DNA from: Bacteroidales bacterium
GTDB taxonomy: Bacteria > Bacteroidota > Bacteroidia > Bacteroidales > P3
DNA length: 20,017 nucleotides
Assembly (NCBI GenBank): GCA_017545365.1
Contig: JAFWOP010000140.1
Coordinates: forward strand, 1-20,017
Direction of reading: 5' to 3'
The translations under genes and the position numbers were made by a program. This document shows positions 16,301 through 20,017 of the stretch, one piece after another. Below the pieces are notes generated by a model that saw only the letters and a program-made list of their open reading frames with translations, was not told the origin of the DNA and made no database searches. Within the stretch, counting starts at the first letter, position 1. Each line of letters opens with the position of its first letter.

Positions 16301-16333
16301 AGAAGTCCCCTGCTAAGTAGGCAAAGGACTTCT
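16301..16333 (-). terminator. Likely terminator of the fimbrillin-like cluster
   Basis: Arms AGAAGTCC (16301-16308) and GGACTTCT (16326-16333) with a partial inner stem. On the minus strand CGTTTATTATT follows, while the plus strand continues TAAAGTAAAG, so the minus strand is favoured. It could serve both the lipoprotein genes ending at 16383 and, weakly, the permease. Confidence 0.55.
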
Positions 16334-16382: not shown

Positions 16383-17906
16383 TTAGAATTCAGCATAATG
16401 AGCTAACCGTACAGATGAACCCACATATTTCAGTTCAGTATGATTTGTCCACAATGCCTGTAATCCATCTTGGAGGATAATAAAATGCAAGGTCTTAGGA
16501 TTAAGATCAGATGTCCAATAGCAACCTTCATACTCCACAGAATAGACACCCTGCCGTCCTAAACGCATTCCGCCTATGGGTAAAAAGACTGCCCCCCCAT
16601 CATGTTGCATTATTCCCCATTGGGTTATGGTATAATTGTTAGCTGTTCCACTATTACCAGGAGTGAAACTGTATCCAGAGGGAAGTTCCCAATCGTCTGG
16701 CAATAGTATCAAACCTTTAATGCCATTCACTACCCCAATGCCCCATTTTTCTGCAGCATTAGGACGTTGGTTAAAGATATAATTCCATTCTTCACTACTT
16801 AATGTTTGCCAGTAATACCCCGTGCGAACTCCCCAGTCTACAAAGATTGGGAAATCGGAGTCACGGGTTGATGATATGTGTTGTACCGGATTATATCCTG
16901 TTCCCCAACTAAAGAGGTCAATCCAACCATCATACGTTGCACTGGCGTTGTTGTTGCCTATGCCAATAATATCATACATGTTATCAGCAAAGCGCCATGA
17001 ATGAGTGCTTGGCTGATATTGTAGATTACCATTAGCGAAAATCACCTGTTGATTTTCACTTACCGAAAATCTTCTTTGGGTTGTCCAATAATGGTCAAAT
17101 GTTATAAAGGTTTCAAAATCCATATCGTTCTCATCAAAGGAAATAGGGGTGTACTGGCTGCGGATTACAGGAATGGCAACATTGGCAGTTTTGATACAGT
17201 GAGTTCCGTCTGTTGTATGGATGTCTATCACCAGCTCGTTGTAGGTGCCGGCTGGCATGACAACATAGAAATCGTGTCCATTGTCAATCGGCTGTGGTGT
17301 GCTGCATGTTAGCGTCACATGGTTCACCCCTTTATTGGCATACGTTAGTGTAGGCTCTCCATTATTGTAATCAATGGTGTAGTTGCCGCTTATGTGTGCG
17401 TCTGCTGTTATAATAATCGAATTCACAGAGGTGTTAGCTTTAGTAAGGTGTAGCTTCAACGCTCCGCAGAGGTTTTTGAACTCTAAAGTGTTGTTGTTGC
17501 TTTCGGCATACATAGGCAGGCCGACCAAATTGCCGTCATCGCTTATTTGTGTTGAGGGAAGCGTGATGGTGTTCCCATCAGTGGTAATCGTAGCCGGATA
17601 GTAGGCACGGCAAGGGGCCATCACTGGGCTACCGCTCATTTGGCTGAATGTGGCTGTAGTGGGAGGTATACCGGGTGTGGCAGAATATATGCCGTCTCCA
17701 CCCACACCATAGATGGATATTTGGTCATCATTCTCCCAGTTCAGAGAGGTGCCGTTAAGGGCGGTCTTGCCAAGTTCGTCATAGTAGTTCTCCATAGTGG
17801 CCACAAACTGGCTGCTGACCGACTGATTCTCTTTGTTACATGAAACAAAGGCTATTAAAGATGATATTGACAATGATGTCAATAATAATGTAATTGTTCT
17901 TTTCAT
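16383..17906 (-). CDS. Fimbrillin-like surface lipoprotein B
   Basis: 507 residues from the ATG at 17906, which opens the lipoprotein signal MKRTITLLLTSLSISSLIAF with lipobox FVSC (lipidated C23). The frame runs 25 codons further up but overlaps the end of the preceding gene. Residues about 30-270 look like an Mfa/FimA-type fimbrillin-like domain: FVATMENYYDELGKTAL, NWENDDQISIYG, FKNLCGALKL, ISGNYTIDYNNGEP. From about residue 279 comes a second domain (QQVIFANGNLQYQP, LSSEEWNYIFNQR, VNGIKGLILLPDDW, GAVFLPIGGMR, YWTS, SSVRL). It resembles the FISUMP-like paralogous domain of gut Bacteroidales surface proteins. It follows lipoprotein A by 13 bases. It could be an adhesin or a minor fimbrial subunit; the ligand is unknown. 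Confidence 0.8.
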   Translation of the reverse strand: MKRTITLLLTSLSISSLIAFVSCNKENQSVSSQFVATMENYYDELGKTALNGTSLNWENDDQISIYGVGGDGIYSATPGIPPTTATFSQMSGSPVMAPCRAYYPATITTDGNTITLPSTQISDDGNLVGLPMYAESNNNTLEFKNLCGALKLHLTKANTSVNSIIITADAHISGNYTIDYNNGEPTLTYANKGVNHVTLTCSTPQPIDNGHDFYVVMPAGTYNELVIDIHTTDGTHCIKTANVAIPVIRSQYTPISFDENDMDFETFITFDHYWTTQRRFSVSENQQVIFANGNLQYQPSTHSWRFADNMYDIIGIGNNNASATYDGWIDLFSWGTGYNPVQHISSTRDSDFPIFVDWGVRTGYYWQTLSSEEWNYIFNQRPNAAEKWGIGVVNGIKGLILLPDDWELPSGYSFTPGNSGTANNYTITQWGIMQHDGGAVFLPIGGMRLGRQGVYSVEYEGCYWTSDLNPKTLHFIILQDGLQALWTNHTELKYVGSSVRLAHYAEF

Positions 17907-17919
17907 TTGTATAAGTGTT

Positions 17920-19560
17920 TTATTTGCTGAAGTCATTGCCATCGAATTCTGAACTGCTACCGATGAAGTTCTCATTGCCACCCGATATGTTGTAATCCAT
18001 CACTAGACGCACAGAGATTTCGGATTCGCGTCCAATTGTATACATGTCTACGTCACTAGTATTAAAAAAAGTGCAAAATGCCGATTCGTTGTCACTAGGT
18101 GTTGATGCCCAGTAATAACCATAGTTTTGTCCAAACCTATTAATTTTCATGTGCATACGATATCCATTGGCAACTAGAAATACCGCACCTGCTCGTGACA
18201 TCTCTGCCCATTGGTCGAGGGTGTAGCTGTTGTGTGACCAACGGTTGTCTGTTTCCGATTCAGGCATAAATCCTGGAGTGAATGTACATCCAGAAGGGAG
18301 TGTCCAATTGTCGGGCAGTACCACCATGCCGTGCACTCCGTTCACATTGCCCGCTCCATATTTCGATGAGGCATCTGTGCGGGAGTTGAATAAGTGGTTC
18401 CACTCATCACTGGTCAGTGTACGCCATTGGCCACACTGGCTACCGCCATTGCTGATGGAGTTGACACCCCAGTCCGCAAAGGCGGCACCGCTAGTGAAAT
18501 ACCCAGGGTAGTTAGGGCTGTTGGCACTATGCCAGTAGAAGATGCTTTGCAAGTATGAGTTCCCATTATCGCCATCACGATATACATTTCGTGTGTCGAA
18601 AAGCCAGGTGCCAGGCATATTGTTGCCCTCTACACCAGCATGGGTGCCAATGGGGCTATACAGAAGGTTGCCGTTCGAGAAGAGTACCTGCTGCCCCTGT
18701 CCCACAGTAAATAATCCGGGCAATGCCCCTGCGTAAGGAGAAAAATCGAGGTTGTTACCAGTCAGTGTGATGGTGGTTATCATGCTACGGCGTACACGTA
18801 CGCTGCTCCCAGTCCGCACAATCTTGGTACACACGCCTCCATCGCTACTATAGATTCGGATTTGCATTCCCTCGTACACCTTCTCTGGCAGATAGATGTA
18901 GAAGTCTTTTTGTGTGGCGATGCTCTGTGCTGTTGCGCAGGTCATCATCACCGAAGGCTCGTTCTTCATCTCTTCCTCGGTTTGGAATGTTTGTGGACTT
19001 CCCTCGGCACTTAATAGGGGGTGTCCATTGTTATAATTCACACTAAAGAGTCCGGAGATAAATTCGTTGGCAATAATTTCTATCCCCATTATGCTCACTC
19101 CGCTCTTCTGTAGTCGCAGCCTCAGTATACCGCAGAGGTTTTTAAAATCCAGTTGCGTGTTATCTGATTGTGCCATCATGGGGAGGTCTTTCAGCGAGCC
19201 ATCCACCGTAGCCTGCACTACGGGCAGCCACACCTGATTTCTTCCTCGTTCAGCTGAGGCTGGATAGATGGCGCAATAGGGTCCGCTACCCGCATCGCCG
19301 CTGACAACGTTCAACGTTGTCGTGCCGACCGTGTGGTTGACTGCCTCGTACACTCCGCTTCCAGTTGTGCCGTATACCTTTATCTGATCGCCGTTCTCCC
19401 AATATATTACGTTGTTAGTCATTACTGTCTTCCCTTGCTCGTCCTTGCATTTTTCCATTGTGGCGGTGAATGTTTTGGCTGCGATTTCCTCCTTTTGGCA
19501 CGAAGAGATAGTAAATACCATAACGGTCAGCATTAATATAAGTGATATTATTTTTTTCAT
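17920..19560 (-). CDS. Fimbrillin-like surface lipoprotein A
   Basis: 546 residues with signal MKKIISLILMLTVMVFTISS and lipidated C21. It is a clear paralogue of lipoprotein B, sharing both domains in the same order. The N-terminal fimbrillin-like domain has FTATMEKCKDEQGKTVM, IYWENGDQIKVYG, FKNLCGILRLRL and ISGLFSVNYNNGHP. The second domain from about residue 282 has QQVLFSNGNLLYSP, LTSDEWNHLFNSR, VNGVHGMVVLPDNW, FTPGF, GAVFLVANGYR, YYWAS and ISVRLV. After SVRL it has an extra Gly/Asn/Ser-rich tail of about 26 residues that B lacks. It is probably exported to the outer membrane surface. It sits between the small peptide gene (66 bases upstream) and lipoprotein B (13 bases downstream), an operon-like layout. 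Confidence 0.82.
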   Translation of the reverse strand: MKKIISLILMLTVMVFTISSCQKEEIAAKTFTATMEKCKDEQGKTVMTNNVIYWENGDQIKVYGTTGSGVYEAVNHTVGTTTLNVVSGDAGSGPYCAIYPASAERGRNQVWLPVVQATVDGSLKDLPMMAQSDNTQLDFKNLCGILRLRLQKSGVSIMGIEIIANEFISGLFSVNYNNGHPLLSAEGSPQTFQTEEEMKNEPSVMMTCATAQSIATQKDFYIYLPEKVYEGMQIRIYSSDGGVCTKIVRTGSSVRVRRSMITTITLTGNNLDFSPYAGALPGLFTVGQGQQVLFSNGNLLYSPIGTHAGVEGNNMPGTWLFDTRNVYRDGDNGNSYLQSIFYWHSANSPNYPGYFTSGAAFADWGVNSISNGGSQCGQWRTLTSDEWNHLFNSRTDASSKYGAGNVNGVHGMVVLPDNWTLPSGCTFTPGFMPESETDNRWSHNSYTLDQWAEMSRAGAVFLVANGYRMHMKINRFGQNYGYYWASTPSDNESAFCTFFNTSDVDMYTIGRESEISVRLVMDYNISGGNENFIGSSSEFDGNDFSK

Positions 19561-19626
19561 TATGATAGATAAATTTAATGATTATACGTTTGTGGCTATT
19601 CTTTTTACGGTTACGATGCGGGCCAA

Positions 19627-19800
19627 TCAGGTATATCTGGCACCCTCGTTGAAGATGTCGTTGCCATAGCTGTCACCCTCAGTTATCGGATCACCAACCG
19701 TACTGCCAGCGATAAAACTACCGGCAAAGCCCTTTTCCACGCGGGCGTTTAACATTTCTACTTGCGGAGCTTCATACTCCTGTTTCTTGATTTGTTCCAT
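19627..19800 (-). CDS. Small protein with EYEAPQVEML head and GFAGS motif
   Basis: 57 residues from the ATG at 19800. The frame extends 34 codons upstream, but that part translates a perfect palindrome and an AT-rich leader. The protein has no signal peptide and no cysteine. The first about 20 residues are charged and helix-prone with EYEAPQVEML. Then comes EKGFAGS, and a Gly, Asp and Ser-rich acidic tail ending in NEGARYT. Short proteins with a similar Y.AP..E....EKGFA pattern occur in gut Bacteroidales beside fimbrillin-like genes, as far as I recall, and have no assigned role. The head, break and tail layout would fit a regulator or peptide precursor, but nothing proves this. It probably belongs to the lipoprotein cluster. 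Confidence 0.65.
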   Translation of the reverse strand: MEQIKKQEYEAPQVEMLNARVEKGFAGSFIAGSTVGDPITEGDSYGNDIFNEGARYT

Positions 19801-19854
19801 ATTCTTTATTGTTAATGAGATTAAGTTATTGATTGTTGTTTTGTTGATAGTTAT

Positions 19855-19869
19855 GGGATTGAAAATCCC
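19855..19869. repeat. Small palindrome GGGATT-GAA-AATCCC
   Basis: 6-bp arms around GAA, located 6 bases from the larger palindrome at 19875-19907. It has the same GGATT/AATCC core, so the pair looks like one repeat unit. Confidence 0.5.
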
Positions 19870-19874
19870 TTTCT

Positions 19875-19907
19875 CCATTGTGGCGGATTGCAAATCCGCC
19901 ACAATGG
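19875..19907. repeat. 33-base perfect palindrome (REP-like)
   Basis: 15-bp perfect arms (19875-19889 and 19893-19907) around a 3-base GCA loop, with GTGGCGGATT in the left arm. It starts 5 bases beyond the stop codon of the partial lipoprotein gene and lies 75 bases before the small peptide ATG. There is no T-run on the minus strand (AGAAAGGG follows). It is therefore more like an extragenic palindromic repeat that may stabilise the upstream mRNA or attenuate transcription than a standard terminator. Confidence 0.7.
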
Positions 19908-19911
19908 GTGG

Positions 19912-20017
19912 CTATTCCACATTTTGGACTAAGCGAACAGAGGCTCCATGAGTCCTTGATATCGAATTAAACGTTCCTAACATATTACCATAAAAAGTCA
20001 TTATTCCTTGGCTATAG
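19912..20017 (-). CDS. Partial fimbrillin-like lipoprotein, C-terminal end
   Basis: The last 34 codons of a gene that continues beyond the right edge of the window. The reading frame gives YSQGIMTFYGNMLGTFNS, then ISRTHGASVRLVQNVE and a TAG stop at 19912-19914. The closing SVRL followed by a short tail matches the ends of the two complete lipoproteins (SSVRLAHYAEF, ISVRLVMDYN). The position also matches the end of the same C-terminal domain. This would be the third member of the tandem family. Confidence 0.7.
   Translation of the reverse strand, partial: YSQGIMTFYGNMLGTFNSISRTHGASVRLVQNVE

What the first reader, a model, noticed from the sequence alone, without database searches (positions are those of the whole stretch)
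16383..20017. Tandem family of two-domain surface lipoproteins with an embedded small peptide gene
At least three paralogues (one cut by the window edge) lie head to tail with a 57-residue non-secreted protein between them. The proteins keep the same architecture but differ strongly in the middle of both domains, so they look diversified rather than recently duplicated. An N-terminal fimbrillin-like domain joined to an SVRL-ending FISUMP-like domain is not the usual FimA/Mfa1 subunit plan. The cluster could be a surface adhesin set or an antigenic-variation reservoir.
Basis: partly seen in the sequence, partly recalled or inferred. Interest (0 to 1): 0.75.

Follow-up and report, generated by a model that had tools for sequence, protein, structure and literature searches.

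The report
Modified-peptide precursors paired with surface lipoproteins
A short gene lying between surface-lipoprotein genes of an uncultured gut-type Bacteroidales looks like the precursor of a chemically modified, exported peptide, and related genomes keep many such precursor and surface-protein pairs scattered about, probably all served by one set of modifying enzymes.

Summary
On the minus strand lie the end of lipoprotein C, a 57-aa peptide gene, lipoprotein B and lipoprotein A. B models as a fimbrillin (type V pilin-like) N-domain plus a C-type-lectin-like domain. The notable part is the peptide. Sixteen related genomes, chosen because they hold one, have 9-23 copies each. Of 90 distinct copies, 84 sit directly upstream of a lipoprotein gene (background 43 of 468). 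82 of those 84 carry B's N-domain, only 57 its C-domain. The peptide has a YxxPx[VI]...ExGFxxS leader. [quoted passage not shown] In other Bacteroidales they join a nucleotidyltransferase and an MsbA-like exporter; in three genomes peptide and N-domain lipoprotein lie in that cluster. This gene set was described in 2026 for "linear polyphosphorylated peptide" (LPP) RiPPs, said to be restricted to Bacillota. Best reading: the peptide is an LPP-like RiPP precursor whose precursor-lipoprotein pairs have multiplied and dispersed. Unshown: modification, cleavage, export and function. The window's own genome is not held. An antigenic-variation reservoir is unsupported.

The parts
19912..20016 (-). 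3' end of lipoprotein C (third paralogue, cut by the window edge)
   Evidence: Identical to the C-terminus of P0010
19875..19907 (.). 33-base palindrome between C and the peptide gene
   Evidence: RNA fold of 19865-19912: -26.6 kcal/mol, z -7.0; the same core lies just after a lipoprotein gene in L063
19627..19800 (-). 57-aa peptide gene: proposed RiPP precursor
   Evidence: Family of 34, then 48 aligned, then 91 distinct members; no Pfam or NCBIfam match at E <= 1
19729..19800 (-). Proposed leader M1-G24 (YEAPQV = YxxPxV; VEKG)
   Evidence: Conserved columns; cleavage after G24 is inference
19630..19728 (-). Proposed core F25-T57 with the conserved Ser28
   Evidence: Ser at this position in 87 of the 90 peptides that fit the motif, of 91
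17920..19560 (-). Lipoprotein B (546 aa; lipobox ...SSC21)
18751..19488 (-). B residues 25-270: fimbrillin-like N-domain
17992..18738 (-). B residues 275-523: C-type-lectin-like / Lcl-CTD-like C-domain
17923..17988 (-). B residues 525-546: extension resembling a peptide tail
   Evidence: Only matches of a 106-tail HMM among 1129 C-termini are B and its copy P0001, E 0.0024
16383..17906 (-). Lipoprotein A (507 aa), paralogue of B
   Evidence: 36% identity over 503 aligned columns, E 1e-88
16301..16333 (-). Terminator-like hairpin after A
   Evidence: 13-pair stem and T-rich tail; region total 2 against 3.1 in shuffles, so weak

Best explanation
The 57-aa protein is the precursor of a ribosomally made, post-translationally modified peptide (RiPP) of an LPP-like pathway, encoded as a unit with the surface lipoprotein that follows it. 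Proposed mechanism: a PqqD-type recognition element (RRE) binds the YxxPx[VI] leader; an HprK-like kinase phosphorylates the conserved Ser (ExG[F/Y]xxS); an archaeal-type signal peptidase removes the leader near the ExG; an MsbA-like ABC transporter exports the core, possibly after a nucleotidyltransferase step. Outside, the core works with the fimbrillin-like N-domain of the neighbouring lipoprotein, which displays a variable lectin-like or other C-domain. Shown: the genes, their linkage, selection on the peptide, co-occurrence with the enzymes. Inferred: every chemical step, the cleavage site, export, and the partnership with the lipoprotein. The enzymes are shown in relatives, not in the window's own unheld genome.
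For: Linkage: 84 of 90 peptides precede a lipoprotein (median gap 27 bp) against 43 of 468 other genes, p 2e-59. 82 of the 84 lipoproteins have B's N-domain (81 when the signal peptide is left out of the model), 57 its C-domain. Copy number 9-23 in 16 of 16 genomes, which were chosen for holding a peptide. Selection: pN/pS 0.03-0.25 in 6 of 8 comparisons. Machinery: PqqD in 15 of 16 focal genomes; RRE, HprK-like kinase and signal peptidase clustered in 15 of 16 examined loci of peptide-bearing genomes (four of them supplied the queries); RRE's best solved match is lasso RRE TfuB1 (E 2.7e-6); kinase fold in the PEPCK/HprK family; Ser/His/Asp pattern of the signal peptidase in 20 of 22. Cluster-embedded precursors in G035, G129, G377, G405; in G129, G377 and G405 the next gene is a lipoprotein with the same N-domain (hhalign E 2.6e-12, 5.8e-8, 2.2e-12; a control lipoprotein aligns only over its 24-aa signal peptide). 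Genus-level co-occurrence of kinase and peptide p 9e-4. LPP chemistry from PMC13381572.
Against: No peptide product has been seen. Kinase and signal-peptidase HMM scores lie below curated cut-offs. In focal genomes no exporter was located and the nucleotidyltransferases lie on other contigs. The peptide does not match the full LPP motif (no HQ, no FET; Ser one residue further from Tyr). Peptide without machinery: G386 has a PqqD at a contig edge and no kinase or signal peptidase in the 8 kb held; G054 has only a weak kinase match, G182 and G439 none. Machinery without a recognised peptide: 8 of the 10 other strong kinase loci, and peptide-free G028 has all three genes. PqqD is in 8 of 13 and PF14907 in 5 of 13 peptide-free genomes. 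Order-wide overlap of kinase and peptide (7 genomes, p 9e-8) rests on five genomes that supplied the kinase profile and a close relative; without these six it is 1 of 5, p 0.16. Incomplete MAGs could add to the genus-level result. The G377 peptide was found only by local search (E 6e-4) and lacks the exact GFxxS. 6 of 90 focal peptides have no lipoprotein downstream; five of 22 distant ones follow a T9SS-type protein instead.
Confidence: 0.72

Rival explanations
1. The peptide is a regulatory leader peptide: its translation controls expression of the downstream lipoprotein by attenuation or coupling, with no role as a product.
For: Short gaps (median 27 bp); the peptide is small and mostly the first gene of a pair.
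Against: Selection acts on the amino acids, tail included: identical tails in four paralogues with about 9 synonymous differences per pair. Solo copies and copies downstream of T9SS-type proteins exist. It lies inside RiPP-type clusters. A near-invariant Ser follows the leader.
Confidence: 0.12
2. The peptide is an ordinary small cytoplasmic or chaperone-like protein for the fimbrillin-like lipoprotein; its likeness to RRE-bound leaders and its co-occurrence with the RRE-kinase-peptidase cluster are coincidental.
For: The motif is short; PqqD proteins are widespread (8 of 13 peptide-free genomes); machinery clusters also occur without a recognised peptide; order-wide co-occurrence without the profile's own genomes is not significant.
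Against: Peptide within 10 kb of the kinase in 3 of 6 non-focal genomes, where chance gives p 6e-4; the overlapping G377 operon; genus-level p 9e-4.
Confidence: 0.12
3. A plain tandem adhesin or antigenic-variation cassette array, the peptide being incidental.
For: Three diversified paralogues with a divergent stretch near the C-terminus; fimbrillin fold.
Against: Lipoprotein genes are dispersed as well as tandem; reverse transcriptase in only 5 of 16 genomes; the peptide is too regular a neighbour to be incidental.
Confidence: 0.04

Closest known systems
Linear polyphosphorylated peptide (LPP) RiPPs of Bacillota (PMC13381572; sections 4, 6, 7, 11, 12 and search passages read)
   Same: Same enzyme kinds: discrete RRE, HprK-like kinase, archaeal-type signal peptidase, nucleotidyltransferase, MsbA-like exporter; YxxPxV leader; conserved Ser just after the leader; variable C-terminus.
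   Different: Bacteroidales rather than Bacillota; many dispersed precursors per genome; most paired with a fimbrillin-domain lipoprotein; leader lacks the HQ and FET residues; the one focal signal peptidase scanned carries a VanZ-like domain.
Phosphorylated lasso peptides (paeninodin type)
   Same: PqqD-type RRE, HprK-like kinase, nucleotidyltransferase, YxxP/WxxP leader (PMC13381572).
   Different: B2 leader peptidase (PF13471) found in 0 of 32 genomes.
Type V pilus (FimA/Mfa) subunits and tip proteins
   Same: Lipoprotein signal and fimbrillin-like N-domain fold; Pfam Mfa_like_1 above cut-off in two distant partners, L149 and L160.
   Different: C-domain is lectin-like, LRR or absent; A and B match no fimbrillin HMM.
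FISUMP / Lcl-CTD C-type-lectin-like domains
   Different: Below the curated cut-off; no match in A or P0010.

Membership tests
LPP RiPP pathway | Discrete PqqD-type RRE | tested here: met
   PF05402 in 15 of 16 focal genomes, above cut-off, e.g. 7.5e-12; TfuB1 E 2.7e-6
LPP RiPP pathway | Archaeal-type signal peptidase clustered with the RRE | tested here: met
   15 of 16 loci; TIGR02228 1.4e-10 to 2.5e-4 in the four proteins scanned, below the curated cut-off; Ser/His/Asp pattern in 20 of 22
LPP RiPP pathway | HprK-like kinase | tested here: met
   AF2 model pLDDT 92.4; the 50 listed PDB matches (of 53 with E <= 0.001) are all PEPCK or HprK; HMM scores below cut-off
LPP RiPP pathway | Nucleotidyltransferase and MsbA-like exporter in the cluster | tested here: inconclusive
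   Both in G035 and G355 and in 6 of 10 other loci; in focal genomes PF14907 in 14 of 15 but on other contigs, exporter not located
LPP RiPP pathway | Precursor consensus YxxPxVLxHQxIxFETxxS | tested here: not met
   YxxPx[VI], E and Ser present; HQ and FET absent; Ser 19 rather than 18 residues after Tyr. Hence LPP-like, not LPP
LPP RiPP pathway | Phosphorylated core Ser; leader cleaved by the signal peptidase | not testable with these tools
   Needs mass spectrometry
LPP RiPP pathway | RRE within the LPP clade of the RRE tree | not tested
   No LPP RRE sequences were fetched
Lasso peptide pathway | B2 transglutaminase-like leader peptidase | tested here: not met
   PF13471 in 0 of 32 genomes; among 14 control genomes it rings in 2, Bacteroides ihuae and Haloferax volcanii
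Type V pilin family | Fimbrillin fold of the N-domain | tested here: met
Type V pilin family | FimA/Mfa family HMM match for A or B | tested here: not met
   No Mfa, FimA or FimB model at E <= 1
FISUMP domain (TIGR02145) | Score above the curated cut-off | tested here: not met
   B 19.3 against 41.65 bits; no match in A or in P0010 (E <= 0.1)
DGR target proteins | Reverse transcriptase in the genome | tested here: inconclusive
   PF00078 in 5 of 16 genomes; RT type not examined

The most novel reading that the evidence does not exclude
A RiPP used as a structural part of the bacterial surface: each exported, phosphorylated core peptide binds or completes the fimbrillin-like N-domain of its own lipoprotein (for instance as a donor strand, cap or covalent decoration), so that one enzyme set matures many peptide-adhesin pairs per genome. 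Window lipoprotein B, which has a peptide-tail-like sequence fused to its own C-terminus, would be a natural fusion of the two partners.
Probability: 0.25. Interest if true: 0.92.

Novelty: new variant of a known kind. Interest (0 to 1): 0.78.

Why it matters
LPP RiPPs were described in 2026 with final product and biological role unknown, and the authors state that they are restricted to Bacillota (PMC13381572, discussion). Here an LPP-like gene set appears across Bacteroidales, and in one clade it goes with 9-23 precursor-like genes per genome. It also adds a clue not reported in the sections I read: a fixed partner, a fimbrillin-domain surface lipoprotein. If true, it ties a RiPP to adhesin or pilus biology and gives a directly testable function. 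It would also give a function to a family of short hypothetical genes (390 protein clusters by profile search at E <= 1) for which the seven members scanned gave no Pfam or NCBIfam match above a cut-off.

Tried and rejected

Counts and drops: one search used 91 distinct peptides from 90 sources (window, L001-L029, L060-L119), all chosen because they hold a peptide; one was dropped for lack of downstream sequence; two tandem peptides (L115) share one lipoprotein and are counted twice. In one search not all matches were listed; regions were fetched around listed matches of eight genomes, not all copies. In one search I count 22 distinct distant peptides after removing four duplicate loci: 13 are followed within 43 bp by a lipoprotein start (judged by eye), one precedes the kinase, five follow a T9SS-type protein (sorting domain confirmed by HMM for three), three have none or no room. 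(75 of 80 N-domain lipoproteins have a peptide upstream) is biased by the choice of loci. RRE loci were examined in 16 of the 21 peptide-bearing genomes with PqqD. Of six peptide-free PqqD loci looked at (about 3 kb or less each), four have no kinase or signal peptidase, one a weak kinase, one (G028) all three. Of the ten strong kinase loci outside the first set (L255-L264), six have all five genes, eight have RRE, kinase and signal peptidase, and two (G377, G405) a recognised peptide. Of 24 kinase loci (L231-L254, short stretches), 21 have a signal-peptidase-like and 14 an RRE-like ORF; two show weak in-cluster peptide matches (L243 E 3e-3, L254 E 2e-3).

Literature: searches (131 used whole words, so 'bacteroid' missed 'Bacteroides'; it is weak; 132 matched 616 papers of which 12 were listed). 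No paper on LPP-like clusters in Bacteroidales or on a peptide paired with fimbrillin lipoproteins appeared in these listings; most subscription papers and bioRxiv preprints are not held. PMC12710340 and PMC7533575: passages only. PMC7470986: term search with no hits. PMC4159848: listing only.
Full report
1. What is there. The finding's stretch reads, on the minus strand, C (3' end, 19912-20016), a 33-base palindrome (19875-19907), a 57-aa peptide gene (19627-19800), lipoprotein B (17920-19560), lipoprotein A (16383-17906) and a terminator-like hairpin (16301-16333; such hairpins are no more frequent here than in shuffles). The peptide-B gap is 66 bp and the B-A gap 13 bp. The cut C is identical to the C-terminus of P0010, a 528-aa homologue on a 42,031-base contig; two more peptides of the family have a longest contig of the same length, so the set probably continues to the right. 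The nine other window proteins scanned are housekeeping or ordinary envelope proteins.

3. The peptide is the key. A scan of genome contigs with six peptides gave 29 loci, all in uncultured Bacteroidales or Bacteroidetes MAGs (one named Candidatus Colimorpha), from rumen, omasum or horse faeces where the title tells. A profile then found 9-23 copies in each of 16 of these genomes. From 90 sources I collected 91 distinct peptides; of the 90 with sequence downstream, 84 are followed on the same strand by a lipoprotein start within -20 to 200 bp (median 27, 78 within 70), against 43 of 468 other genes in the same loci (Fisher p 2e-59). 82 of these 84 lipoproteins carry B's N-domain (81 if the signal peptide is left out of the model), only 57 its C-domain. 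So the constant partner of the peptide is the fimbrillin-like N-domain. The family is found in 49 of 59 genomes drawn from one genus, 30 of 101 of the family, and in the order 5 of 198, 9 of 247 and 11 of 295 with successively broader profiles. In distant genomes 13 of 22 distinct peptides again precede a lipoprotein, while five follow a T9SS-type protein.

4. It is a real, selected protein. Four paralogues of one genome share the tail TGSNEDLISSGEVHGGSDFD with about nine synonymous differences per pair over these 20 codons (pN/pS 0.03; the few non-synonymous steps counted come from multi-step serine codon changes). Other leader and tail comparisons give 0.10-0.31, and one ungapped tail set 0.52. 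The layout is Y..P.[VI]......[VI]E.G[F/Y]..S followed by a variable, Gly/Ser/Asp-rich tail that usually ends near an aromatic residue. 90 of 91 fit Y..P...E.G[FYLI]..x, with Ser at the last position in 87 of the 90. No Pfam or NCBIfam model matches the seven members scanned above a cut-off; one gave a chance-level Pfam match at E 0.11.

5. The machinery. YxxPx[V/I/L] is the motif bound by discrete RREs of lasso, PQQ and LPP pathways (PMC13381572, introduction). PqqD-family RREs occur once in 15 of 16 focal genomes (G012 has a second, weak match), in 6 of 6 distant peptide-bearing genomes and in 8 of 13 peptide-free Bacteroidales (p 0.019). [quoted passage not shown] four of these loci supplied the search queries; the exception, G386, is cut by a contig edge. 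Of six peptide-free PqqD loci, four have neither, one a weak kinase, and G028 all three. The kinase model (pLDDT 92.4) resembles PEPCK and HprK. The signal peptidase keeps the Ser/His/Asp pattern in 20 of 22, the kinds of residue shown to be catalytic in LppS (PMC13381572). The RRE profile's best solved match is the lasso RRE TfuB1. In other Bacteroidales the genes sit with a nucleotidyltransferase (PF14907) and an MsbA-like exporter: all five in G035, G355 and 6 of 10 further loci. This is the gene set reported for LPP RiPPs, in which a 27-aa leader is removed by the signal peptidase and Ser3 of the core is multiply phosphorylated. The paper calls LPPs restricted to Bacillota; 37 of 295 Bacteroidales genomes have the kinase at E <= 1e-10.

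6. The link. In G035 the peptide lies directly before the kinase. In G129, G377 and G405 peptide and lipoprotein are adjacent within the cluster. In G377 the order is peptide, lipoprotein, kinase, signal peptidase, RRE, nucleotidyltransferase, exporter on one strand, with the last genes overlapping by a few bases. The G377 peptide was found only by local search (E 6e-4), not in the genome-wide one. The three cluster lipoproteins share the N-domain of the window's family by profile comparison (G405 E 2.2e-12, G377 5.8e-8, G129 2.6e-12); in G129 the protein is little more than that domain. A control lipoprotein aligns over its signal peptide only. The simplest history is that precursor and N-domain lipoprotein began inside the cluster, and the pair multiplied and dispersed in the focal clade while RRE, kinase and signal peptidase stayed at one locus. 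The direction of this history is inference.

7. Statistics against. Kinase presence at E <= 1e-50 and peptide presence overlap in 7 genomes of 295 (16 and 11 positives; p 9e-8), but five of the seven supplied rows to the kinase profile and a sixth, G001, is a close relative of others that did; without these six the overlap is 1 of 5 (p 0.16). The genus test (47 of 49 peptide-bearing genomes have the kinase, 5 of 10 peptide-free ones do; p 9e-4) is better, though incomplete MAGs may add to it. The within-10-kb test (3 of 6 non-focal genomes with both, p 6e-4) left out G377, whose peptide was found by looking near the kinase. Eight of ten further kinase loci show no recognised peptide; they may use other precursors.

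8. B's tail. B's last 22 residues, after the usual SVRLV end, resemble peptide tails; among 1129 C-termini only B and its near-identical copy match the tail HMM (E 0.0024). A, 13 bp downstream, has no peptide of its own. A deletion that fused A's precursor tail to B is the likely origin. Whether it is a relic or a working fusion is open.

9. Verdict. I do not file it as LPP: the full precursor consensus is not met and the chemistry is untested. The window's own genome is not held, so its machinery is assumed from relatives.

Noticed in passing
19875-19907: Strong palindrome (TGTGGCGGATTGCAAATCCGCCACA core) just after C's stop codon; the same core lies just after a lipoprotein gene in L063. Possibly a REP-like element or transcript-end hairpin.
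   Followed up: partly
L120, L124, L139, L148, L156 (genomes G035, G386): In two genomes peptides of the family lie 20-84 bp downstream of proteins with T9SS-type C-termini, so the surface partner may not always be a lipoprotein.
   Followed up: partly
L221:10554-11300 (+): In this focal genome the signal-peptidase-like protein carries a VanZ-like membrane domain at its C-terminus (PF04892, E 1.1e-8); other focal copies are of similar or greater length but were not scanned.
   Followed up: no
L019, L020, L022, L025, L099, L119 and others: Several peptide-partner lipoproteins end in a short tail [S/A]K after the domain (e.g. TSGSSK, RPTSK), as window B does (DFSK); meaning unknown.
   Followed up: no
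L115:4388-4740 (-): Two tandem peptide genes in front of a single lipoprotein gene.
   Followed up: no
L011:9989-10150, L027:9980-10150, L028:6211-6405, L023:9977-10174: Solo peptide genes without a lipoprotein, followed by terminator-like hairpins by eye in most cases.
   Followed up: partly
G016 loci L060, L062, L063, L064: Four peptides of one genome have identical tails but different leaders and different lipoproteins, as if the tail answers to a shared partner.
   Followed up: partly
L243 about 2517, L254 about 1046: Weak peptide-profile matches (E 3e-3, 2e-3) beside RRE and kinase ORFs in two further Bacteroidales genomes; possible divergent precursors.
   Followed up: no
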